Program-made: the position numbers and the translations under genes
Shown: positions 17,081-53,286 of the stretch, one piece after another
Numbering within the stretch: position 1 is the stretch's first letter
Layout of the letters: each line of letters begins with the position of its first letter
Notes under the pieces: model-generated
The model's database searches: none
The model's input: the letters and a program-made list of their open reading frames with translations, nothing else
Told to the model about the DNA's origin: nothing
From: a virus
Virus record (IMG/VR): IMGVR_UViG_3300009159_000088
Coordinates: 1-53,286 of that record
Direction: 5' to 3' (one strand)
DNA: 53,286 bases

Positions 17081-17314
17081 ATGTTAAAGGATATTCCAAC
17101 AAAGCAGAGTCTTACTCAAACGATTGAAAGTTTAGTTTCTAAAGAAGGAATGTCCTATATTGAAGCCGCTCTTCACTATTGTGCAGAACTACAAATTGAC
17201 CCATTGGACGTTGGTAAACTTATCTCTCCTGTCATTAAATCTAAAATCGAAGCCGAAGCAATGACACGCAATCTATTACCGAAGGGCAATTCGCTTTCAA
17301 GTTTTATTAAATAA
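17081..17314 (+). CDS. 33: Late transcription co-activator gp33
   Basis: A 77-residue protein. Its centre (IESLVSKEGMSYIEAALHYCAELQIDPLDVGKLISPVIKSKIEAEA in outline) matches gp33 of marine T4-like phages. In T4, gp33 binds the RNA polymerase beta-flap and links the gp45 clamp to the gp55 late sigma at TATAAATA promoters, which are frequent in this window. I chose the ATG at 17081, which gives the family's usual start and length; a longer in-frame reading would overlap the glycine-zipper gene. It is followed by gp59 and gp32 after two inserted genes. Confidence 0.85.
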   Translation: MLKDIPTKQSLTQTIESLVSKEGMSYIEAALHYCAELQIDPLDVGKLISPVIKSKIEAEAMTRNLLPKGNSLSSFIK

Positions 17315-17880
17315 TGTCTTTTCTATTAGACACGCCTTACACACCGTGCCTTATAAGAAATGAATTCCTTTTCGATGAACAAGAAGGTCATGGTGAATTT
17401 ACCCATGGTTTTGTTTTTGGTTTTAGAGCGGAGCCGCACGGTGTACCAGTGTTTCAGGTTATGCTCGAAAACGGAGCGCAATGGGCACGGATACCGGTGC
17501 ATATGATCTGCAGTAAACCATGCGACCCATTACCGCTGGATATATGTGTATGGTGGGATGGTTTTAGTAGGTGCAGTACCGTCCATCAGTTTAACTTTCT
17601 AAAAAACATGCCTGTTGATTGTTATGGAAGAGATAAAATAACTCGTAGGGGCAATTACATATTTACAATTGACTGGGCAAAGGATGGCTGGTCGGAAATA
17701 CCGGACCAGCATAAAAATCATCATATTATCAGTTTAAATACCGGTCAATGGGTGGCCTATCCTAACAATAAAACAGTTTGGCTCGATAATAGCTGGATTA
17801 AGCCAGAAGTAAATTTTAAGTGGAAAAGCCCAAGTAAAAGTTATAGCGTCGAAAGCAATCCATCAAATTATTCTATATGA
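17314..17880 (+). CDS. Hypothetical protein, 188 aa
   Basis: A 188-residue protein rich in Trp, Pro and His. Residues 25-75 (GEFTHGFVFGFRAEPHGVPVF then WARIPVHMIC) suggest a beta-sheet domain, and there are several conserved-looking Trp residues (WWDG, DWAKDGW, WVAYPN). I recall similar proteins near gp33/gp59 in marine T4-like phages, without known function. It overlaps gp33 by one base and the next gene by 4. Confidence 0.7.
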   Translation: MSFLLDTPYTPCLIRNEFLFDEQEGHGEFTHGFVFGFRAEPHGVPVFQVMLENGAQWARIPVHMICSKPCDPLPLDICVWWDGFSRCSTVHQFNFLKNMPVDCYGRDKITRRGNYIFTIDWAKDGWSEIPDQHKNHHIISLNTGQWVAYPNNKTVWLDNSWIKPEVNFKWKSPSKSYSVESNPSNYSI

Positions 17881-19880: not shown

Positions 19881-19910
19881 GAGGGTCCTCGAAAGGGGAC
19901 CCTCTTTTTT
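19881..19910 (+). terminator. Rho-independent terminator after gp32
   Basis: GAGGGTCC (19881-19888) pairs with GGACCCTC (19897-19904), followed by six T. It ends the 33/59/32 transcript at the point where it meets the minus-strand tail genes. Confidence 0.92.
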
Positions 19911-22551
19911 AGTAAAATTGTGGAGTCAACATCCAGGAGGTACGGTCGGGAATGTTGTTCGAATTATATGTAACAGATTTATTGTCGTTGTTGATGGTTC
20001 GGCTTGAAGAACCACCACCTCCACCACCCGAAGATGCACTAATCATTGCTGCATTTGCTGCATTTGTGTAAGCGTCTTCGGTACGAGCAGTATCGGTTTC
20101 AAGTGCATTCATTTCGGCGCCAACAATCGGCGAATCACTTCGTTCAAGTTGCGCTGTTCTGGCATAAGTGTTAAGCAACTCTTCATCGGAGTTTAACACA
20201 GCTTTTTGTGTTTCATCGAGCAACGCCGTCTGCTCGTATGCGTCTAACATATCAGCATCCGTCACTCTTGTCGATCTAAGAGGTGATTCTTCAGCAATCG
20301 TATTAACCGCAGACTTTAGTCCATCGAGAGATTTAAGACCAAATGGATCTTCAGATGCACCTAATGGAGCAGCAGTAATTTTACTTGGTTTAAGTCCTAA
20401 TGGATCTTCAGATGCACCTAATGGAGCAGCAGTAATCGGCGAAGACTCACCGGCTGCACCTGCTGCACCTGCTGCACCTGCTGCACCACTGCTTCCGCTT
20501 GAAGGCAGACCAAGTAGATCGAGCGCCTTCTTTGTAAGATCGAATCCAAATAATCCTGAGATTGCATTTAACGGAGATAAAAGCGTTTTAACTAAACCAC
20601 CCATAACATCTAAAAATATGGATTTAAGATCCTTTTCTCCGCTAAAAAGGTCTTTTAGCCCGTAGAATATTGAACTAATAAAGGCGAATTGATCCGTAAA
20701 AAATGTTACAACAGTATCGATTACTCCATTAATTGCATTCTTGATAATATCAGTGAAACTAAAACTATCCAAAGCTGCAGCAATACCGTCGAAACCTAAT
20801 GCTCCCGCGATCCATGAAACTCCGCCCTTCAGCATATTAAGGAGTCCTCCAATAAGACCGTCAACTAGGTTTGAAAGCCCATTTTTAAGCCCTCCTATAA
20901 TTTTATCAATAAAACTGCCTTCAGTTTTCTGAAAACCATCGATAAACCCCGTAACTAAATCAAATAAACCAATGATTGCGGTAATTGGCCAAGCTATTTT
21001 GCCAAGAATACTACCAAATGCACCGGCAAATTTACCAAAGATACCACTAACATTTCCGAGTGCCTTAAATATGCCTCCGGCTGCTTTCATTACAAAACCC
21101 AGCCCAATACCTATTTTATCAACGATGTCGCCAAAATTAAAACTGTCAAGCATTTTTTCTAAATCTTTAAAACCCAATGCTCCGGCAGCCCATGAAACAA
21201 TACTCTTCATGATATTAAAGATACCACCAATAAGACCATCAAGGAATTTTTTAACACCGCCTCTGAGCCCTCCCAAAAGTTTATCTATGAAATTGCCTTC
21301 AGTTTTTGCAAAACCATCAATGAAGCCAGTAATCGAATCGAATATACCCATGATCACCTGAAACGGAACATTTAATTTACCAATAAACGAACCTAATGCT
21401 TTACCAAATCTAAACATTACAGCTGTAACAAGTTTCATTTTACCGAAAAAAGAACTAATACCTTTAAAAGAATTAATTAATTTTCCTACAATACTAGTAG
21501 ATTCAGTACCGATAGATAATACTCTTTTTATAAGATTGAATTTTTTTATGACCGGCTCAAATGCTTCGGAAATACCCTTTCCTAAATTCGTAAAACCTTG
21601 AAACAATTCTGTAATGTAACCAATCAATGCAGATCGTTTTATTATTTGATACAATGCTCTAACCTTAGAACCAAAACGCTCAACAATTCCAATTATATCA
21701 TCGAATGATTTAGTTATAAACGTACCAAATTTTGATTGTTTAATTGTTTGATACAATGCTTTAGTTTTAGAAGAAAGACGTTCTCCAATTTCAACAATAC
21801 TTTTAAATGCTTTTGTTATTTCAGCAACAAACTTTGAACCTTTAATTTTTGCTAGTAATGGACGAAAGTCTAAAAGTTTAGTGAGGCTTTTGAATACCTC
21901 TTTGGCTTGGATTGCCAATTCTGCAACAAAGCTTGTAACAAAACCCAATAGAGCTGCACCCACCGCAACCGCCCATGCACCCCAACTCATTTCTGGTTTT
22001 TCCGGTTTTTCGTTCTTTTCCTCCTCTTCTTTTTTCTTGTTTTCTAGAGCCTCTCGAATTTTTTCAAATATTTCAAGCATCTCCTTGTTATTTTCTAAAT
22101 CTTTCAGAGAACTACCTCTGTTTGCGGCATCAACTAAGGAGCCAACGCGTACCATAATTTCTTCATTTGAAATTTCAATATTCTTCAAATATTCTTCAAT
22201 TGCAATTAAACTAATACCATTTGATTCTGCATAATTTGAAATAAAGGATAACCCAGCCACAATTTCCTTATCGTTTGCTGTAGGTTTTTGCGATCCTTTT
22301 TTAGGCGTGTTCGCAAGAATCTTAGTTAAACAATTCAAGCTTTTTTCCGAATTATTTACCAACTCATTTAAACGAGCAACCATTTCACTATTCTGTGTTT
22401 TATTGGCATCGCTGCTTGCTGTCGTAGCTTGTTCAGTAATAAGCAACGACTTTTGGATACCTTCAAGCTGAAATACTTGGTTAAAACTACCTTTGTTCGA
22501 AATTTGAAGTTCCGATAAAATATCTTGAAATGTTTTGTCTTTTTCAGGCAT
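19909..22551 (-). CDS. Tail tape-measure / hub-rod protein (gp29-position)
   Basis: An 880-residue protein with a helical N-terminal third, Gly-rich hydrophobic helices in the middle, and a Ser/Ala/Gly-rich C-terminal region. Two tandem copies of about 90 residues (near 395-485 and 522-612) share F-D-x-(V/I)-T-G-F-I-D-G-F, K-T-E-G-(N/S)-F-I-D-K, W-(A/I)-A-G-A-L-G-F and L-D-S-F-(N/S)-F motifs, with a spacing of about 127 residues. Length, repeats and hydrophobic segments are typical of tape-measure proteins, and it lies directly after the gp26/gp51 pair, where tail chaperones sit in other tailed phages. In T4 this role belongs to gp29 (590 aa); sequence similarity to it is not obvious to me. 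Confidence 0.7.
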   Translation of the reverse strand: MPEKDKTFQDILSELQISNKGSFNQVFQLEGIQKSLLITEQATTASSDANKTQNSEMVARLNELVNNSEKSLNCLTKILANTPKKGSQKPTANDKEIVAGLSFISNYAESNGISLIAIEEYLKNIEISNEEIMVRVGSLVDAANRGSSLKDLENNKEMLEIFEKIREALENKKKEEEEKNEKPEKPEMSWGAWAVAVGAALLGFVTSFVAELAIQAKEVFKSLTKLLDFRPLLAKIKGSKFVAEITKAFKSIVEIGERLSSKTKALYQTIKQSKFGTFITKSFDDIIGIVERFGSKVRALYQIIKRSALIGYITELFQGFTNLGKGISEAFEPVIKKFNLIKRVLSIGTESTSIVGKLINSFKGISSFFGKMKLVTAVMFRFGKALGSFIGKLNVPFQVIMGIFDSITGFIDGFAKTEGNFIDKLLGGLRGGVKKFLDGLIGGIFNIMKSIVSWAAGALGFKDLEKMLDSFNFGDIVDKIGIGLGFVMKAAGGIFKALGNVSGIFGKFAGAFGSILGKIAWPITAIIGLFDLVTGFIDGFQKTEGSFIDKIIGGLKNGLSNLVDGLIGGLLNMLKGGVSWIAGALGFDGIAAALDSFSFTDIIKNAINGVIDTVVTFFTDQFAFISSIFYGLKDLFSGEKDLKSIFLDVMGGLVKTLLSPLNAISGLFGFDLTKKALDLLGLPSSGSSGAAGAAGAAGAAGESSPITAAPLGASEDPLGLKPSKITAAPLGASEDPFGLKSLDGLKSAVNTIAEESPLRSTRVTDADMLDAYEQTALLDETQKAVLNSDEELLNTYARTAQLERSDSPIVGAEMNALETDTARTEDAYTNAANAAMISASSGGGGGGSSSRTINNDNKSVTYNSNNIPDRTSWMLTPQFY

Positions 22552-24696: not shown

Positions 24697-25137
24697 CTAC
24701 AGTATTTTAATGCCAAGCCTTCGAAGCATGTCCTCGTCCCAAATCTCAAAAACCCACCCGCGGTCGCTGGCGTACTCGGTTGCCGCCTCCCACTTCGAAA
24801 TGTTTTTTGCATAGGTCATAACCTCTGTAATGTATCTTTTAGTTTTTTTACCGGGGTTCTTCGGTGGGCTTACTTCTTTCTTGGGTTTTACCTCAATTAA
24901 CATGATTCGGCCATCCGTAAATTCAAACTTGACATCAACGAAATACCGATGCATCCTGCCGTCCGTCTTGCATCGATAAGGCACAACAACCTCTTCCGAA
25001 CTCCATGAAGCAACAAATGATTGTTCGTCCAACCATTTAAAAAGCTGCCGCTCCCAAAGAGAGCGATAAACAATGTTCGATGCATTGCCACGGTATTTGG
25101 ATGTATTCTTAGGCGTGAAGGTACCCTTGTATGTCAT
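24697..25137 (-). CDS. 4: Head-completion nuclease-fold protein gp4
   Basis: A 146-residue protein homologous to T4 gp4 (also called gp50/65), which is needed to complete the packaged head before tail joining. It shows SKYRGNASNIVYRSLWERQLF, then WSSEEVVVPYRCKTDGRMHR and IEVKPKKE. The putative TnsA-like nuclease residues E30, D68, E82 and K84 are all present. It is the first gene of the minus-strand tail block, read from a late promoter overlapping the one for gp48. Confidence 0.9.
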   Translation of the reverse strand: MTYKGTFTPKNTSKYRGNASNIVYRSLWERQLFKWLDEQSFVASWSSEEVVVPYRCKTDGRMHRYFVDVKFEFTDGRIMLIEVKPKKEVSPPKNPGKKTKRYITEVMTYAKNISKWEAATEYASDRGWVFEIWDEDMLRRLGIKIL

Positions 25138-45320: not shown

Positions 45321-48044
45321 ATGCCTACCGAAGTCGAACGTACAGATACATTTGAAACATGGCGCCAAAAGAGTAATGCCATTTCTGCTGACCTTGGCAC
45401 GACTGCCCAGTTGCCTTCCGACCTGGTCCTGAAAACGATCACCCTTGCTGAAACTGGTAACTACACAGCAACTCAAACCGTTACAGGTTCACATTCCGGA
45501 TCGACTGCGACCGTTGTTTCGATTGATGGTACTGTTCTTACAGTTAAAAATGTATCGGGTAATTTCATTGATCGAAGCGTTCAAAAATCAACTCTAATAA
45601 TCGAGCTTTCGGGTTCTTCCAGTGTATACACTCCCGTTGCATTGGGTGTTGGTGGCCTTATTACGGGTACTGATTCATCTGGTACAAGCGGCAATGGCGC
45701 ATCCGGAGCAACAGCAAAGGTATTTTCGTGTACCGTTGTTACAGGTACCTTTATTAAATTAGTTGTATATGATATTACTGGATCGTTTAAACCAGGAACG
45801 GATTACATCAGTCAAGGGTCGACTAGATTTCTTTTAAAACAAATTGTTTTAAATGATGCATCCGATAATGGAGAAAATATTGTTCAATCGGTGAGTGTTT
45901 CAAAAGAAATTGTTCGTTTTAATCATGATGTAATTACTGCATTGAGCGAGATTAAGGACGGAGACACAACATTTAATGGCATTAAAACATTTGCCGATGA
46001 TGCAATTTTTCAGGATAATGTTACGATCAATGATAATCTTACCGTTGATACAAATACATTGTTTGTTGATTCGACAAATAATAGAGTTGGTATTGGAACA
46101 CTTACTCCCACAAAAACTCTTCATGTTCAAGGAACTCTAAGAGTAACCGGCGATGTTACATTTGATACTCCTATTCCACTTGATACCCAAACAAGCGGAA
46201 ATTATGTGGCAACTGTTACTGCTGGAGGCGGTATTTCAGTATCAGGATCTGGAACAGAAACTGCAGCAGTAACTGTTGAGCATTCTGATACATCTTCTGT
46301 TGCAAATTTAACTGCGGTGAGTCGCACTTACGTTACGGCTCTTGGTTTTGATACCTACGGACACGTTATTAATTATTCGACTGGAACAGAAACAACACCG
46401 TTGCAAGGCGTCCAGGGTATCCAGGGTATCCAAGGCACACAAGGTACTACTGGTACCGGAACTCAAGGCGTCCAAGGTGTTCAAGGTACAGTTGGTTCTC
46501 AGGGTATCCAAGGTATTCAAGGTGCATCGGGAAGCGGCGGAGCAGGCAGCGGAGCTCAAGGCATCCAAGGTATTCAAGGCATCCAAGGCACACAAGGTAC
46601 TACTGGTACCGGAACTCAAGGCATCCAAGGTACACTTGGTTCTCAGGGTATTCAAGGTTCTACTGGCGCTGGAACTCAGGGTACTCAAGGTATTCAAGGT
46701 ATTCAAGGGCAAATAGGACCCGGCGGCGGAGCTCAAGGTACTCAAGGTACACAAGGTGAACAAGGTATTCAAGGGAATACCGGAACTCAAGGTACTACTG
46801 GTGCCGGAACTCAAGGTGCTACTGGTACCGGAACTCAAGGTACTCAAGGTGCATCGGGAACCGGTAGCGGAGGAAGCGGTGCTCAAGGCGCTCAAGGCGT
46901 ACAGGGTATCCAGGGTATTCAAGGTATTACTGGTGCTCAAGGTATTCAAGGTATTACTGGTGCTCAAGGTATTCAAGGTGGTTTTGCAAATCTTACGGGC
47001 TTTATTGAATCCGCCACCGGAGCAGTTTCTACGCTTTCAGCTAATGGTAGACCGGTTCTTACAAACTTGGTCGCACCGGGAGATATGAATACTCTTGCGG
47101 GTACATTTAATATTTTTGCGGCAGGTTCCGGAAATGGTCATCTTGCATATTCGGTTTTATCGCAACCTGCAATAGGGAATGGAGCAGTGACTGGTACCGG
47201 TAATGGTAGTGGATCTGCGCTAACATTTCATAGCAATCAGGTAACCGGAAGTCCACAAAGAGTCTGGGGAACAACTAACGGCTCGCATTTCGAACTTTAC
47301 GAACCAAGCGGTATTCAAGGTACAGCAGGTGCTGATGGTAACGATGGTGCTCCTGGTGCTGATGGTAACGATGGTGCTCCTGGTGCGGATGGTCCGACTG
47401 GTCCAACTGGTGCTCCTGGTGCCGATGGTAATGATGGTGCTCCTGGCGCGGATGGTCCAACTGGTCCAACTGGTCCAACTGGTGCTCCTGGTGCCGATGG
47501 TAATGATGGTGCTCCTGGCGCGGATGGTCCAACCGGTCCAACTGGTGCTCCTGGTGCCGATGGTAATGATGGTGCTCCTGGTGCCGATGGTCCAACTGGT
47601 CCAACTGGTGCTCCTGGTTCTGATGGTCCAACTGGTCCAACTGGTGCTCCTGGCGATGCTGGTCCAACTGGTCCAACTGGTGGACCTGGTCCAACTGGTG
47701 CTCCTGGTGCCGATGGTCCAACCGGTCCAACTGGTCCAACTGGTGGACCTGGTCCAACTGGTGCTCCTGGCGATGCTGGTCCAACTGGTCCAACTGGTGC
47801 TCCTGGTTCTGATGGTCCAACTGGTCCAACTGGTGCTCCTGGTTCTGATGGTCCAACTGGTGCTCCTGGCGATGCTGGTCCAACTGGTCCAACTGGTGCT
47901 CCTGGTGCCGATGGTGGAACTGGTCCAACTGGTCCAACTGGTCCTTCTGGCGTTATAGCATTAGAAAGCATTAGTGGTTATAATTCTGGCGTCAATCAAT
48001 ATTTAAGAAATACTGCCGGCACATTTGAATGGGTAAACGAATAA
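45321..48044 (+). CDS. Collagen-like tail fibre, 907 aa
   Basis: A 907-residue fibre. The N-terminal 350 residues contain beta-modules ([20 protein letters not shown]) and a [20 protein letters not shown] segment typical of fibre attachment regions. Residues about 360-553 are G-x-Q/G-x-T triplets ([10 protein letters not shown]), residues 554-663 a globular domain, and residues 664-875 G-P-T/G-A-P/G-A-D triplets, ending in a short C-terminal domain ([19 protein letters not shown]). Long G-x-y runs form collagen-like triple helices in phage fibres. The triplets contain no Lys, so hydroxylysine-type glycosylation is not possible, but Thr in the Y position is frequent. Confidence 0.88.
46400..46980 (+). 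repeat. Collagen-like coding repeat, GIQ/GTQ type
   Basis: Degenerate tandem repeats built on GGTATTCAAGGTATCCAA-type 9-base and 18-base units, encoding G-x-Q triplets with short interruptions (GSGGAGSG). They create long spurious frames on both strands. Confidence 0.85.
47312..47945 (+). repeat. Collagen-like coding repeat, GPT/GAP type
   Basis: Tandem repeats based on GGTCCAACTGGTGCTCCT units, encoding [12 protein letters not shown] and related triplets. The low codon variation suggests recent expansion or ongoing recombination. Confidence 0.88.
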
Positions 48045-48081: not shown

Positions 48082-48417
48082 ATGGCTGTATTCGCAAACA
48101 TTTCCGTCGACCAAGGTTCATCTTTTACATCGATTATTGTCGTTGAAGGAGTTGAGGGTCTTATTGTGAATTTAGAAAATTACACGGTAAGAGGACAAAT
48201 TCGCAAAACATATGCGTCATTGACGGCAGTTAATTTTACTGCGGAGATTATATCTGAAGATTCTGGTGAAATTGAAATTTCATTAACAGCCGCTCAAACA
48301 CGAGCAATGAAGCCTGGACGATACGTTTACGACGTTGAAGTTATCGACGACACGAACATTGTGACAAGAGTCGTAGAAGGACAACTCGAAATTAACCCAG
48401 CAGTCACTCGGCCGTAA
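48082..48417 (+). CDS. Beta-sandwich fibre accessory protein, 111 aa
   Basis: A 111-residue protein of alternating strands: VDQGSSFTSIIVVEG, YTVRGQIRKTYAS, GEIEISLTAAQTRAM and GRYVYDVEVID. This is the pattern of small Ig-like or BppU-like phage domains found with receptor-binding proteins. No function beyond virion or fibre association can be given. It has a late promoter with a very short leader. Confidence 0.7.
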   Translation: MAVFANISVDQGSSFTSIIVVEGVEGLIVNLENYTVRGQIRKTYASLTAVNFTAEIISEDSGEIEISLTAAQTRAMKPGRYVYDVEVIDDTNIVTRVVEGQLEINPAVTRP

Positions 48418-48654: not shown

Positions 48655-49158
48655 ATGGCCACTGAAACAATTGTAAAACATCGGACAAGTTCAACACCGG
48701 GTGCTGTTCCGAATACAACGGATTTAACTCTTGGTGAATTGGCGATTAATGATGCGGACGGGTTCGTATTTTTACGCAGAACAGATTCCGTCCAATCGGT
48801 CGATGAGATTGTTAGACTTCGCGCTTCTCCTGTTCTTGGTTCCGGAGATAATTTTGTTTTCAATAAGATTCTAGTTTCAAGTGCGGGAAATCAACTTGTC
48901 GACAGTGTTTTAGCCACAGAGTATCGCACTGTAAAATATGTAATTCAATTTACTTACGCTGGAAATTTTCAGTCGACCGAATTACTTTTACTTCATGATG
49001 GCAGTTCGGTTTATTTGACGGAATATGCAATAATTCAAACGAACATGAATCTAGGAAACATCACAGCCGTCGTTGAAAGTGGATTGGTTAAATTATTAGT
49101 TACTCCTACATTTCCAAATACAACAGTTAAAGGAGTACGCGCAGCTATAAAACTTTAG
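48655..49158 (+). CDS. Tail-fibre attachment-type protein, 167 aa
   Basis: A 167-residue protein. The first 50 residues (IVKHRTSSTPGAVPNTTDLTLG, then ELAINDADGFVFLRR) match the N-terminal domain common to many phage fibre and tropism-determinant proteins, with a beta-sandwich region after it. It probably is a short fibre or an adaptor. The next gene is under a dual early/late promoter. Confidence 0.75.
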   Translation: MATETIVKHRTSSTPGAVPNTTDLTLGELAINDADGFVFLRRTDSVQSVDEIVRLRASPVLGSGDNFVFNKILVSSAGNQLVDSVLATEYRTVKYVIQFTYAGNFQSTELLLLHDGSSVYLTEYAIIQTNMNLGNITAVVESGLVKLLVTPTFPNTTVKGVRAAIKL

Positions 49159-49159
49159 T

Positions 49160-49188
49160 GTTTACTTTTATAAATAACAGTGTATTAT
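49160..49188 (+). promoter_or_regulatory. Overlapping early and late promoters for the sugar cassette
   Basis: Early layout: GTTTAC (49160-49165), 17-bp spacer, TATTAT (49183-49188). The spacer contains the late box TATAAATA (49169-49176). Predicted starts are near 49195 (early) and 49182 (late), 19 and 32 bases before the ATG at 49214. Confidence 0.75.
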
Positions 49189-49213
49189 AACATACTAACT
49201 TATTCTATAATTT

Positions 49214-50212
49214 ATGAAAAACTTTGTGAAACTTGCATTGCAAAATGGTGGAGCTATTAAGCCGTTAATTGTTCCAGCAAACCTTACGAAAGGTACGGGT
49301 CTGATGAACCCGTCTATTTTTAATGATGGAGGTAAACTTAAGGTTGTAATTCGGCACGTAAATTACACTTTTTACCATTCTGAAAACAAACTGTTTTTGC
49401 ATCCATGGGGTCCACTCACATATTTGCATCCCGAAAATGACATGCATCTTCGGACGGTCAATTATTATGGAGAATTAGATAATTCACGTGATCTAAACCT
49501 CAATCGTATTACAAAAATCGACATGAGCTTTGGAGATACCTATGAGCCCAAGTGGGAATTTGTGGGTCTTGAAGATGCACGACTTGTGCGATGGGATGAT
49601 AAGCTGTTCATCACTGGTGTTCGTCGTGATACAACCACGAATGGTCAGGGTCGCATGGAACTTTCTGAAATCGTTGTTACGGAAGATGCAGTAAAAGAAG
49701 TTTCAAGGTTCCGTATTCCAACTCCGGTTGATCCAAAATCATACTGCGAAAAGAATTGGATGCCAGTTCTGGACAAGCCGTTTCATTACATTAAATGGTG
49801 TACGCCAACTGAAATTGTAAAGGCAGATCCAGTCGCGCAAACCTGTGAAAGAGTGATCATGACGGATAATAATCCAAATATTCGTCGCGATTTGCGCGGT
49901 GGAACTCAGGCAGTAAAGATTGGCAATCAATATATTGCAATTACTCATGAAGTAAATCTATTTAAATCCGATGTTGGTCGTAAGGATGCGGTGTATTATC
50001 ACCGTTGGGTTGTATGGGATGAGAATTGGAACATCATCAAATACTCAAATGATTTTTTCTTTCTTGATGCTCAGGTTGAATTTGCAATTGGATTATGCTT
50101 AATCGACGACAAAGATGTTGCGATTACCTTTGGTTTTCAAGATAATGCCGCATATGTTATGCGTTGCCCTATTTCTACAATTATGAAGTTTATTGAGGAG
50201 AACAACACATGA
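49214..50212 (+). CDS. GH130-like five-bladed beta-propeller enzyme
   Basis: A 332-residue protein with the GH130 (beta-mannoside phosphorylase/hydrolase) pattern: NPSIFNDGGKLKVVIRHVNY near the start, then FVGLEDARLVRWDDKLFITG with the E-D-x-R motif (E120-D121, R123), and later HEVNLFKSDVGRKDAVYYHR. The E-D-A-R motif is characteristic of GH130 and related propellers. It has no signal peptide, so it acts in the cytoplasm. It could process or build beta-mannose-containing sugars, or be a non-catalytic glycan-binding propeller. It begins the sugar cassette and overlaps the methyltransferase gene by 4 bases. Confidence 0.7.
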   Translation: MKNFVKLALQNGGAIKPLIVPANLTKGTGLMNPSIFNDGGKLKVVIRHVNYTFYHSENKLFLHPWGPLTYLHPENDMHLRTVNYYGELDNSRDLNLNRITKIDMSFGDTYEPKWEFVGLEDARLVRWDDKLFITGVRRDTTTNGQGRMELSEIVVTEDAVKEVSRFRIPTPVDPKSYCEKNWMPVLDKPFHYIKWCTPTEIVKADPVAQTCERVIMTDNNPNIRRDLRGGTQAVKIGNQYIAITHEVNLFKSDVGRKDAVYYHRWVVWDENWNIIKYSNDFFFLDAQVEFAIGLCLIDDKDVAITFGFQDNAAYVMRCPISTIMKFIEENNT

Positions 50213-51387
50213 ACCGCACAACAATCATTAATTATTTAATTGCTCGCCGTCAAGCAAAATCCTATCTTGAAATAGGAATATGGAACGGAGTCAATTTTGA
50301 CAATATTGCCTGCTCAAATCGTACTGGTGTTGATCCATCATGGAGATTACCAAAACGTAAAGATATTCTGGCAATGAGCTCCGATGATTTCTTTAAACAA
50401 AATAAGGAAAAATTCGATGTTATTTTTATTGATGGGCTTCATCATGCCGATCAGGTACTAAAGGATTTAGTAAATGCAATGGATTGCTTGAATCCAGATG
50501 GATATATCGTGTGCCATGATATGAATCCTCTATCAAGAATCGCTCAGCAAATTCCATATTCCGGAAAAGGAGAATGGAATGGTGATTGTTGGAAAGCCTT
50601 CGTTGAATTCCGAAAGCTGCACGATGGTACTCATGACTTTAAAGTCATCAATACTGATCACGGTTGCGGTATTATTACTCCAAGAAAGACCGTTAAGGAA
50701 AATACTTTTGTTGTCACAGAAGAGCTTACATATGAAAACCTTGTTGCAAATCGTCAGGCTTGGTTAAATCTTATTGATTTTGAAACATGGTCGAAAGATG
50801 TTAGCTTTGATGAAATGATGAACGCTTATGTTGGCAACCCGTCGGAGCAATACAACAATTACGTATTGGCTTTGTGGTACGATCAGAATGAGCAAACTGC
50901 TTCCGCAATTTCTTATTATATTCGCGCAGCAGAGCGCAGTACGGAATTGACGCATCAGTATGAGTGTTTAATTCGAGCAGCTCTTTGTTTTCAAAGACAA
51001 GGTACTCGTGGCTTATCCGTTCGTGGTTTGCTGCAGAGAGCGATTTCGATTTTACCAAAACGTCCTGAAGCATATTTTCTTCTTGCACGTTATCATGAAA
51101 GAGAAAGTACCGTTGAAAGCTGGGTCAACTGCTACACGTATGCATCGATGGGTCTCGAAGTTTGTGATTTTCAAACTTGCCCTCCTCTGCGCACTTGGGT
51201 TGAATATCCCGGATATTACGGAATGCTTTTTGAAAAAGCTGTAAGCTCATGGTGGGTTGGTTTGTGCGAAGATTCAAAAAATATGTTTGTGAATCTTTAC
51301 AAAAACTATCAATGGATCAATGACGGTTATAGAAACTCTGTAATTAACAATCTTAAATTCATGAAGGTTAATACAGATACACTATGA
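50209..51387 (+). CDS. SAM methyltransferase fused to TPR-like repeats
   Basis: A 392-residue protein. Residues about 15-150 are a class I SAM-dependent methyltransferase (YLEIGIWNGVNFDNIA with the glycine loop, GVDPS, then FDVIFIDGLHHADQVLKDL and GYIVCHDMNP). The C-terminal 220 residues are helical TPR-like repeats (NNYVLALWYDQNEQTASAIS, EAYFLLARYHERESTVESW). Such domains bring modifying enzymes to a protein or glycan target. A good Shine-Dalgarno sequence (GAGGAG) lies 8 bases upstream, unlike most genes here. The next gene overlaps its stop by 4 bases. Confidence 0.78.
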   Translation: MNRTTIINYLIARRQAKSYLEIGIWNGVNFDNIACSNRTGVDPSWRLPKRKDILAMSSDDFFKQNKEKFDVIFIDGLHHADQVLKDLVNAMDCLNPDGYIVCHDMNPLSRIAQQIPYSGKGEWNGDCWKAFVEFRKLHDGTHDFKVINTDHGCGIITPRKTVKENTFVVTEELTYENLVANRQAWLNLIDFETWSKDVSFDEMMNAYVGNPSEQYNNYVLALWYDQNEQTASAISYYIRAAERSTELTHQYECLIRAALCFQRQGTRGLSVRGLLQRAISILPKRPEAYFLLARYHERESTVESWVNCYTYASMGLEVCDFQTCPPLRTWVEYPGYYGMLFEKAVSSWWVGLCEDSKNMFVNLYKNYQWINDGYRNSVINNLKFMKVNTDTL

Positions 51388-52931
51388 GTAAATTAGAAAA
51401 TTTCCCAGAAGTATATTGGCTAACACTATCAGATCAACCGGATCGTCATAAATGTATTGAACAGCAATTCCAAAAGTATGGTATTGAAAAACATACAAGA
51501 TTTAATGGGTATGACGGACGCATTTTAGATTACCGCACTCAACCGGATATTGTAACCGGTAGTTATTTTAACATTATTAAATCAACCGATATTGCCTGCG
51601 CAATGGGGCATCTGTCGATGATTAAACAGTGGTATGATAATTCGACGAGCGAGGTTGCTATGTTTTTGGAAGATGATGTGAATCTTGAAAACTGCGAAAA
51701 CTGGAGTTTTACATGGTCTGAATTTTTTAATGCGCTTCCTTCTGATTGGAAAAATGTTCAGCTGGCACAGATTCGTTCGGATGAAATTAGTGATATTGGT
51801 TTTCGCCCTCGGATTCCGTCGGATTGGTGCGTCACAGCATATATTCTAAAGCGGTCATACGCCAAAGAATTAATCGACGATTATTTCGTTGATGGAAAAT
51901 TTCGTTTAATCGTCCAAAAGGATAAACTATCACAGCCTATTGTTGAAAATCTTATCTACTTTCCAGCCGAGCCAAAATCATACAGTATTCCTCTTTTTAC
52001 AGAAAAGAACATTTTCTCTTCAACGTTTTACAGTAACGACAAAAAGAAAGTAAAAGAGTACAATGCTCTTTCGGAAAAGTATGTTACAACTTGGTGGCAA
52101 CAAAATGGAGCTAAATCAAGCCTTACGTCTATTATGACCAAGCCGGCTCCAATTCCAATGATTCCGATGATTGGAACTGCGGTTGTTACAAATACAAAAT
52201 GGGTAAAGCGTCTTGTCGAAAGCGTTGATTTCCCGGTAAAAGAATTTTGCATTATCAATAACAACGGCAGAGGAGAAATTGATGCTGAATTGGATGCTAT
52301 TGCGCAAACACCACACACCTTTATTCGCAAAATAAAGGTCGTTCATATGCCATCTAATCTTGGAGTTCCGGGTTCCTGGAATTTAATGATTAAATCGTAT
52401 ATGAAGGCGCCTTACTGGATCATTGTGAATGACGATGTCGCCTTTGGCGAAGGGTTCTTAGCCGAGATGCATTGCATGACAATGCGCGATCCATCATTTG
52501 GAATAATCCACGGATTTCAAGGAGACCATAATGTTGGAAGCTGGGATTTGTTTTTACTACGCGATCATGTAGTGGCTGATTATGGTCTTTTCGATGAAAA
52601 CCTTTATCCAGCATACAACGAGGATTCCGATTATTTTCTAAGGTTCGTGCATAAACCCATTCGGAAAGTAATGAATCTTAATACCGACTATTATCACGGA
52701 GATGGTAAGAAAAACGAATACCACACTCACGGGCGTCAAACCTCTAAAAGCGATCCAATTTTAAGAAAAAAGTTGGAAGAGGTGAATCTAATGAATATCG
52801 ACTATTTAACGCATAAATGGGGTAGAACCTGGAGGTGGTGCGCTCCTACTGAATTGCCGTTTAATGACAAGCCGATTGGGTATACAACATATGATCTAAG
52901 ATTTGTCAGACAAAAGCATTTAGGCTTCTAA
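51384..52931 (+). CDS. Bifunctional glycosyltransferase, GT25 plus GT2
   Basis: A 515-residue protein with two catalytic domains. Residues 1-200 are GT25-like: YWLTLSDQPDRHKCIEQQFQ, YGIEKHTRFNGYDGRIL, CAMGHLSMIKQW and the acidic metal motif E96-D97-D98. Residues 260-480 are GT2-like (GT-A fold): NLGVPGSWNLMIKS, then YWIIVNDDVAFGEG with D350-D351. GT25 includes bacterial lipooligosaccharide galactosyltransferases and collagen galactosyltransferases. No signal peptide is present, so it acts in the cytoplasm. It lies between two collagen-like fibre genes, so the fibres are possible acceptors; host surface sugars are the alternative. Confidence 0.8.
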   Translation: MSKLENFPEVYWLTLSDQPDRHKCIEQQFQKYGIEKHTRFNGYDGRILDYRTQPDIVTGSYFNIIKSTDIACAMGHLSMIKQWYDNSTSEVAMFLEDDVNLENCENWSFTWSEFFNALPSDWKNVQLAQIRSDEISDIGFRPRIPSDWCVTAYILKRSYAKELIDDYFVDGKFRLIVQKDKLSQPIVENLIYFPAEPKSYSIPLFTEKNIFSSTFYSNDKKKVKEYNALSEKYVTTWWQQNGAKSSLTSIMTKPAPIPMIPMIGTAVVTNTKWVKRLVESVDFPVKEFCIINNNGRGEIDAELDAIAQTPHTFIRKIKVVHMPSNLGVPGSWNLMIKSYMKAPYWIIVNDDVAFGEGFLAEMHCMTMRDPSFGIIHGFQGDHNVGSWDLFLLRDHVVADYGLFDENLYPAYNEDSDYFLRFVHKPIRKVMNLNTDYYHGDGKKNEYHTHGRQTSKSDPILRKKLEEVNLMNIDYLTHKWGRTWRWCAPTELPFNDKPIGYTTYDLRFVRQKHLGF

Positions 52932-52937
52932 AAAACA

Positions 52938-52945
52938 TATAAATA
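52938..52945 (+). promoter_or_regulatory. T4-type late promoter box for the second collagen-like fibre
   Basis: TATAAATA with a predicted start near 52951, giving a 31-base leader that contains AAGGA about 8 bases before the ATG at 52982. This is one of the few genes here with a clear Shine-Dalgarno-like site. Confidence 0.8.
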
Positions 52946-52981: not shown

Positions 52982-53286
52982 ATGTCAATCGATAAAAATT
53001 TTAAAGTTAAAAACGGCCTAGATGTAGGCGGCAACGCACTTATAACCGGAACACTTGCTGTTCAGGGTATCCAAAGTGTACAGGGTATTACGCGCTATCT
53101 GGTCTCGGACTCGGATGGTCGTGTTTTTTATCAGGTCGTTGAAAACGTAGCAGCCGCTCAAGGCGCTCAGGGTATCCAGGGTATCACTGGTGCTCAGGGT
53201 ATCACTGGTGCTCAGGGTATCACTGGTGCTCAGGGTATCACTGGTGCTCAGGGTATCACTGGTGCTCAGGGTATCACTGGTGCTCA
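52982..53286 (+). CDS. Collagen-like tail fibre (5' part only)
   Basis: The first 101 codons of a second collagen-like fibre, running off the window. It begins MSIDKNFKVKNGLDVGGNAL (a common fibre start: KN...VKNGLDV), continues with ITGTLAVQGIQSVQGI and then GITGAQ hexapeptide repeats from about residue 66. The repeats are identical at the DNA level. Its full length and C-terminal receptor-binding part are not visible. Confidence 0.85.
   Translation, partial: MSIDKNFKVKNGLDVGGNALITGTLAVQGIQSVQGITRYLVSDSDGRVFYQVVENVAAAQGAQGIQGITGAQGITGAQGITGAQGITGAQGITGAQGITGA
53180..53286 (+). repeat. Perfect 18-bp tandem repeat, at least six copies
   Basis: GGTATCACTGGTGCTCAG repeated from 53180, five full copies and 17 bases of a sixth at the window edge. 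Each unit encodes GITGAQ. Identical copies suggest recent slippage expansion; the array is likely to continue and may have caused the contig or window break. Confidence 0.9.

What the first reader, a model, noticed from the sequence alone, without database searches (positions are those of the whole stretch)
49160..52931. Sugar-modification cassette between two collagen-like fibres
A GH130-like propeller, a methyltransferase-TPR protein and a GT25-GT2 bifunctional glycosyltransferase, all overlapping by 4 bases, lie between collagen-like fibre genes. GT25 is the family that includes collagen galactosyltransferases. The fibres contain long GPT/GTx runs without Lys, so Thr would be the likely acceptor, as in glycosylated bacterial collagen-like proteins. 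A phage-encoded fibre glycosylation system is a reasonable hypothesis.
Basis: partly seen in the sequence, partly recalled or inferred. Interest (0 to 1): 0.8.

Follow-up and report, generated by a model that had tools for sequence, protein, structure and literature searches.

The report
Phage collagen-fibre sugar-decorating gene set
Next to its collagen-like tail-fibre genes this virus of bacteria carries a small late-expressed set of sugar-handling enzymes whose constant core, a GH130-fold enzyme plus a helical-repeat (TPR) partner, recurs in hundreds of related virus sequences and is strongly linked to collagen-like fibres, so it probably decorates the fibres with sugars, though no experiment yet shows this.

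Summary
49214-50212, 50209-51387 and 51384-52931 are three ORFs with 4-nt overlaps: a GH130-fold propeller, an O-methyltransferase-TPR protein and a GT25-GT2 fusion. They sit in the late fibre block, with an exact T4-type late promoter (TATAAATA, 49169) 45 nt before the first gene.

GT25 is not the link to collagen: it is an optional passenger, unassociated with collagen ORFs, and its cyanophage relatives sit in glycan-synthesis clusters. The constant core is the GH130-like protein plus a ~190-aa TPR domain, together in 64 of 65 dereplicated loci, sometimes fused, while attached enzymes vary. Large viral records with the GH130-like gene carry collagen repeats in 20 of 21 cases, against 5 of 39 T4-like records without it. 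Catalytic GH130 residues are invariant, so the enzyme is probably active.

Best explanation: a modular, phage-specific system that decorates collagen-like fibres with O-linked, methyl-capped glycans (confidence 0.55). Main rival: late modification of host surface glycan. Acceptor, donor and any chemistry are untested; virion mass spectrometry of Synechococcus phage S-SCSM2R, which carries the core, could decide.

The parts
45321..48044 (+). collagen-like tail fibre, 907 aa (GIQ/GTQ runs, then a 216-residue GPT/GAP/GAD run); candidate acceptor
   Evidence: PF01391 2.6e-43, no Lys in the repeats
48082..48417 (+). small tail/fibre-assembly-like protein, 111 aa
   Evidence: phrog_1084 3.3e-25 and phrog_3304 1.7e-24 (L-shaped tail fibre assembly)
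48655..49158 (+). short structural protein with gp9/gp10-like C-terminus, 167 aa
   Evidence: phrog_967 9.2e-10 (baseplate wedge tail fibre connector)
49169..49176 (+). T4-type late promoter TATAAATA, 45 nt before the GH130-like start codon
   Evidence: exact match; NATAAATA within -200..+40 of the GH130-like start in 20/64 loci against a 4.8% background (p=1e-11)
49214..50212 (+). GH130/GT108-fold enzyme, 332 aa, constant core of the module; catalytic-site candidates N32, R47, E120-D121, H245, D310
50209..51387 (+). SAM O-methyltransferase domain (about residues 1-190) fused to the ~190-aa TPR domain (191-391) that is the second core element
51384..52931 (+). GT25 (about 1-250; LEDDV at 95) - GT2 (about 256-515; NDDV 349, EDSDY 413) glycosyltransferase fusion, accessory
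52938..52945 (+). late promoter TATAAATA of the next fibre gene, closing the cassette transcription unit
52982..53286 (+). next collagen-like fibre gene (GAQGIT repeats), cut by the window end

Best explanation
The cassette is a late, cytoplasmic glycan-building module that decorates the phage's own collagen-like tail fibres before or during assembly. A GT domain (here GT25 or GT2) attaches or extends a sugar on Thr/Ser of the GXT repeats. The GH130-fold enzyme adds a further sugar, most likely beta-mannose, from a sugar-1-phosphate or a nucleotide sugar. The methyltransferase caps it by O-methylation. The TPR domain is the constant adaptor that holds the enzymes together or on the fibre. Shown: gene content, predicted fold, conserved catalytic motif, near-obligate GH130-TPR pairing with occasional fusion, varying attached enzymes, late promoter, co-occurrence with collagen repeats. 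Inferred: synthetic direction, donor, linkage, acceptor residue and the role of TPR.
For: Pairing: TPR domain present in 64 of 65 dereplicated GH130-like loci, next gene downstream in 49, same ORF in 2. In the reverse search 61 of 69 TPR loci have GH130-like, and six of the other eight have the TPR gene at or near a contig end. Collagen: PF01391 in 20/21 large records with the GH130-like gene vs 5/39 without; IMG/VR only 18/19 vs 4/22, p=7e-7, or 6e-5 counting doubtful cases against it. Timing: exact late promoter before the cassette and at 25137, 31044, 37190, 48065, 52938 in the structural region. Neighbours: upstream genes are often tail or structural. Chemistry: GH130 fold Z 23.5, GT108 Z 18; N32, R47, E120, D121, R147, K180, R228, H245 and D310 identical in all 42 aligned members, N32/R47/E120/D121/D310 matching N74, R89, E141, D142, D363 of BT3780 (PMC4599007). 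In two TPR loci without GH130 the slot just upstream holds DUF4422 instead, which I recall as a putative glycosyltransferase. Cargo elsewhere: FkbM methyltransferases, GT2, GT17, radical SAM-SPASM. No transmembrane-like stretch in the three proteins. Precedent: sgtA immediately upstream of bclA3 adds GlcNAc to Thr of GPT collagen repeats (PMC7157674).
Against: No acceptor, donor or product is known. GH130 and GT108 enzymes act on sugars, not on protein. About half of the loci (24/49) have no collagen ORF within five genes upstream, and some cores lie in larger enzyme clusters. GT25 relatives in cyanophages lie in LPS/capsule-like clusters. Co-occurrence counts are not fully corrected for relatedness, and many IMG/VR records are fragments. 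The GH130 phosphate-site residues in the middle of the protein could not be aligned with confidence.
Confidence: 0.55

Rival explanations
1. The enzymes modify host surface glycan (LPS or capsule) late in infection, for superinfection exclusion or to stop progeny from re-adsorbing to debris; fibre proximity is shared late expression.
For: GT25 relatives in cyanophages sit in LPS/capsule-like clusters; GH130, GT25 and GT2 all act on glycans; late expression also fits release of progeny.
Against: No flippase, polymerase or sugar-nucleotide genes in the cassette; strong specific link to collagen repeats; TPR and radical SAM-SPASM partners point to protein substrates; GT25-bearing cyanophages with the LPS-like clusters mostly lack both core and collagen.
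Confidence: 0.2
2. The GH130-like protein is a degradative enzyme (mannosidase or phosphorylase) that trims host or environmental glycan, perhaps virion-borne, or recycles sugar.
For: The fold family consists mainly of phosphorylases and mannosidases; late expression.
Against: No secretion signal or transmembrane stretch; paired with transferases, methyltransferases and TPR; replaced by DUF4422 in two loci; H245 aligns with the His of phosphorylases and not with the hydrolase pattern.
Confidence: 0.08
3. The linkage is only a gene hot-spot: fibre regions and accessory sugar genes both vary in T4-like phages of certain lineages and hosts, with no functional tie to the fibre.
For: Cargo is very diverse; half the loci lack a collagen ORF in the five upstream genes; relatedness is not fully controlled.
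Against: A hot-spot does not explain a fixed two-gene core with fusions, nor 18/19 vs 4/22 among capsid-matched contigs.
Confidence: 0.13
4. The enzymes modify phage DNA or nucleotides (glucosylation as in T4).
For: PHROGs name GT25 'glucosyltransferase' and the methyltransferase 'DNA methyltransferase'.
Against: The methyltransferase fold is an O-methyltransferase, expression is late, and partners lie with fibres; no T4 DNA-glucosyltransferase family was hit.
Confidence: 0.03

Closest known systems
Clostridioides difficile SgtA-BclA3 (and Bacillus BclA) collagen-like glycoprotein systems
   Same: glycosyltransferase gene beside a GPT-rich collagen-like gene; Thr is the acceptor (PMC7157674)
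   Different: spore surface, not phage; single initiating GT shown; no GH130-like/TPR core
CAZy GH130 beta-mannoside phosphorylases and mannosidases
   Same: five-bladed propeller, catalytic Asp in a G-x-E-D motif, conserved Asn, Arg and Asp
   Different: sequence below the Pfam cut-off, a virus-specific clade, linked to fibres and TPR
GT108 beta-1,2-mannosyltransferase/phosphorylases of Leishmania
   Same: same fold; shows that the fold can use GDP-Man or Man-1-P in the synthetic direction
   Different: weaker structural match (Z 18), storage polysaccharide role
GT25 family: bacterial LPS transferases, animal and mimivirus collagen glycosyltransferases
   Same: GT25 domain with intact acidic motif; best solved match is mimivirus R655 at E=0.02
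   Different: no Lys in the fibre repeats; accessory, not tied to collagen here
Glycosylated mycobacteriophage virions
   Same: phage-encoded glycosyltransferases proposed to modify virion proteins (PMC11256854 abstract)
   Different: capsid, other enzymes, unrelated phages

Membership tests
GH130 (CAZy / PF04041) | Pfam gathering score 26 bits | tested here: not met
   14.8 bits, E=0.014; 22 of 42 relatives hit at E up to 1, best 1.3e-4
GH130 (CAZy / PF04041) | five-bladed beta-propeller fold | tested here: met
   predicted model only: Foldseek 6.5e-10, VIA Z 23.5 to 5ay9, rmsd 3.2 over 281 residues
GH130 (CAZy / PF04041) | invariant catalytic Asp and mannose-binding Asn, Arg and Asp | tested here: met
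   D121, N32, R47, D310 in 42/42; profile alignment E=2.8e-5; residues from PMC4599007
GH130 (CAZy / PF04041) | phosphate-binding basic residues (phosphorylase) or Glu pair (hydrolase) | tested here: inconclusive
   H245 aligned to the phosphorylase His; K194/R228 region not aligned with confidence
GH130 (CAZy / PF04041) | activity on beta-mannosides | not testable with these tools
   needs enzyme assay
GT108 | fold and GDP-Man-dependent transfer | tested here: inconclusive
   Z 18.0 to MPT-2, lower than GH130; activity untested
GT25 | PF01755 over cut-off with acidic motif | tested here: met
   37.4 bits vs 24, LEDDV at 95
Collagen (hydroxylysine) galactosyltransferases | Lys/Hyl acceptor in the collagen substrate | tested here: not met
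   0 Lys in the collagen runs of both fibres
Collagen (hydroxylysine) galactosyltransferases | GT25 tied to collagen genes | tested here: not met
   8/19 vs 26/42, p=0.17; named phages with GT25 mostly lack PF01391
BclA-type Thr-glycosylated collagen-like protein | GT gene near a Thr-rich, Lys-free collagen-like gene | tested here: met
BclA-type Thr-glycosylated collagen-like protein | O-glycan on Thr | not testable with these tools
   needs mass spectrometry

The most novel reading that the evidence does not exclude
A previously undescribed, virus-specific modular system in which a GH130-fold enzyme works as a glycan builder on virion protein, with a TPR subunit that selects collagen-like fibres and onto which phages plug interchangeable glycosyl-, methyl- and radical-SAM enzymes, giving each phage its own fibre coat.
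Probability: 0.3. Interest if true: 0.82.

Novelty: new variant of a known kind. Interest (0 to 1): 0.62.

Why it matters
Collagen-like fibres are common in environmental phages, and I know of no enzyme system assigned to them. A conserved core found at 600 or more places in IMG/VR would make fibre glycosylation testable, and would bear on host recognition, fibre stability and how phages vary their surface. It would also add protein decoration to the known uses of the GH130 fold.

Tried and rejected
GT25 as the collagen link: no association, and cyanophage GT25 genes lie in LPS-like clusters. DNA-level relatives in named phages: none. Sequence matches of the GH130-like protein in the PDB: none at E up to 1, with single sequence or profile. 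Mapping of phosphate-site residues by subset profiles: the global mode failed and the local mode left the middle of the protein ambiguous. relatives as a collagen-composition control: no collagen ORFs found, so the Thr-rich, Lys-poor composition (30% T, 0.3% K) has no matched control and is not used as evidence. Cellular origin: among 84,980 species genomes only nine hits, all in MAG contigs and eight with the TPR domain next door, probably viral. Sigma-70 promoter and terminator scans gave no excess.

Full report
What is there. The window is a 53-kb viral record from a T4-like myovirus (gp5, gp6, gp8, gp25 and gp53 homologues), related to Pelagibacter, Methylophilales and cyanobacterial phages. 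At 49214-52931 three + strand genes overlap by 4 nt each. A perfect late promoter, TATAAATA, lies at 49169, 45 nt before the first start codon, and another at 52938 before the next fibre. On the + strand there are eight exact copies in the window, about two being expected by chance, and the six in the structural region lie just before structural or cassette genes. Across the family, NATAAATA occurs near the GH130-like start in 20 of 64 loci against a background of 4.8%. The cassette is therefore probably a late operon of its own inside the fibre block.

The proteins. The first is GH130-like only by fold: Pfam score below cut-off, but a confident model that matches GH130 phosphorylases (Z 23.5) better than GT108 (Z 18) and GH43-type propellers (up to Z 18), and a profile-profile match over nearly the whole length (E=2.8e-5). 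Asn32, Arg47, Glu120, Asp121, Arg147, Lys180, Arg228, His245 and Asp310 are the same in all 42 aligned relatives, including one with 27% identity. By position and motif N32, R47, E120, D121 and D310 correspond to N74, R89, E141, D142 and D363 of BT3780, most of which are important for that enzyme (PMC4599007). The protein is thus probably an active enzyme. Whether it is a phosphorylase or a transferase was not settled. The second protein is an O-methyltransferase fold followed by a helical TPR domain. The third has intact GT25 and GT2 motifs.

The constant core. In dereplicated loci the TPR domain accompanies it in 64 of 65 cases, as the next gene in 49 and in the same ORF in 2. Starting from the TPR domain, 61 of 69 loci have the GH130-like gene; six of the other eight have the TPR gene at or near the contig end, and in the remaining two a DUF4422 protein sits in its place (shown for one of them by Pfam, the other by similar start). 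The TPR domain itself is joined to different partners: Methyltransf_24 in front, FkbM-type methyltransferases behind, or GT25. Accompanying genes add GT2, GT17, FkbM, DUF6445 and radical SAM-SPASM proteins. In prokaryote genomes the family is nearly absent.

Link to collagen. Of 49 loci with at least 4 kb upstream, 25 have a collagen-like ORF within five genes, and other upstream genes are often tail or structural. In whole records the link is stronger. Of 19 large IMG/VR records with the GH130-like gene, 18 carry PF01391; of 22 large contigs matched by capsid protein gp23 and lacking it, 4 do (7 if doubtful cases are counted). Two named phages with the gene both carry collagen, and 1 of 17 complete named relatives without it does. 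Fisher p is 7e-7 for IMG/VR alone and 6e-5 in the conservative count. Relatedness is only roughly controlled, so these values are indicative.

The GT25 argument. Within GH130-like loci GT25 presence does not go with collagen. Named cyanophage GT25 genes stand in glycan-synthesis clusters away from fibres. The fibre repeats contain no Lys, so the animal-type collagen reaction is not possible on them.

Mechanism. I favour decoration of the fibre: a GT attaches or extends a sugar on Thr/Ser of the repeats, the GH130-fold enzyme adds (most likely) beta-mannose, the methyltransferase caps, and the TPR domain holds enzymes and fibre together. The closest tested precedent is SgtA, encoded directly upstream of bclA3, which puts GlcNAc on Thr of GPT repeats (PMC7157674). 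Pairing, predicted fold, motif, promoter and co-occurrence are shown; donor, acceptor, linkage and direction are inferred. The main rival, late change of host surface glycan, is not excluded by any experiment.

Limits. Gene calls in loci are mechanical, many records are fragments, models are predictions, and no chemistry was tested. Literature searches found no paper on this core in the library held; that is not proof that none exists.

Noticed in passing
L226:7235-7975 and L231:7223-7966: In the two TPR loci that truly lack the GH130-like gene, a different protein (DUF4422 by Pfam in L231, similar start in L226) sits in its slot, overlapping the TPR gene, beside collagen-rich ORFs; the TPR, not GH130, may be the most constant part.
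   Followed up: partly
L050:10323-11900, L073:8980-10593, L044:61-1644: Second GH130-like copies and GH130-TPR fusions in both domain orders.
   Followed up: partly
window 6511, 7500, 25137, 31044, 37190, 48065, 52938 (+): Exact TATAAATA late-promoter motifs elsewhere in the window; those from 25137 on lie before structural or fibre genes.
   Followed up: yes
L095-L102: Contigs filed under bacterial or archaeal MAGs (Rhodobacteraceae, Chitinophagaceae, Verrucomicrobia, Woesearchaeota and others) carry the GH130-TPR pair, probably viral contigs binned by mistake.
   Followed up: partly
L094:6968-7849 (Actinomycetia phage DSL-LC01): A distant GH130-like gene (25-27% identity) next to a methyltransferase gene, without the TPR domain, in a phage that is collagen-positive.
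   Followed up: no
window 17314-17880 and 19909-22551: A gene matching phrog_3704 (labelled ferredoxin) and an 880-aa minus-strand ORF with no Pfam match.
   Followed up: no
L047:12078-15074, L073:12338-13936: Large fusions such as FkbM methyltransferase + GT17 + DUF6445 in one ORF, near the core.
   Followed up: no
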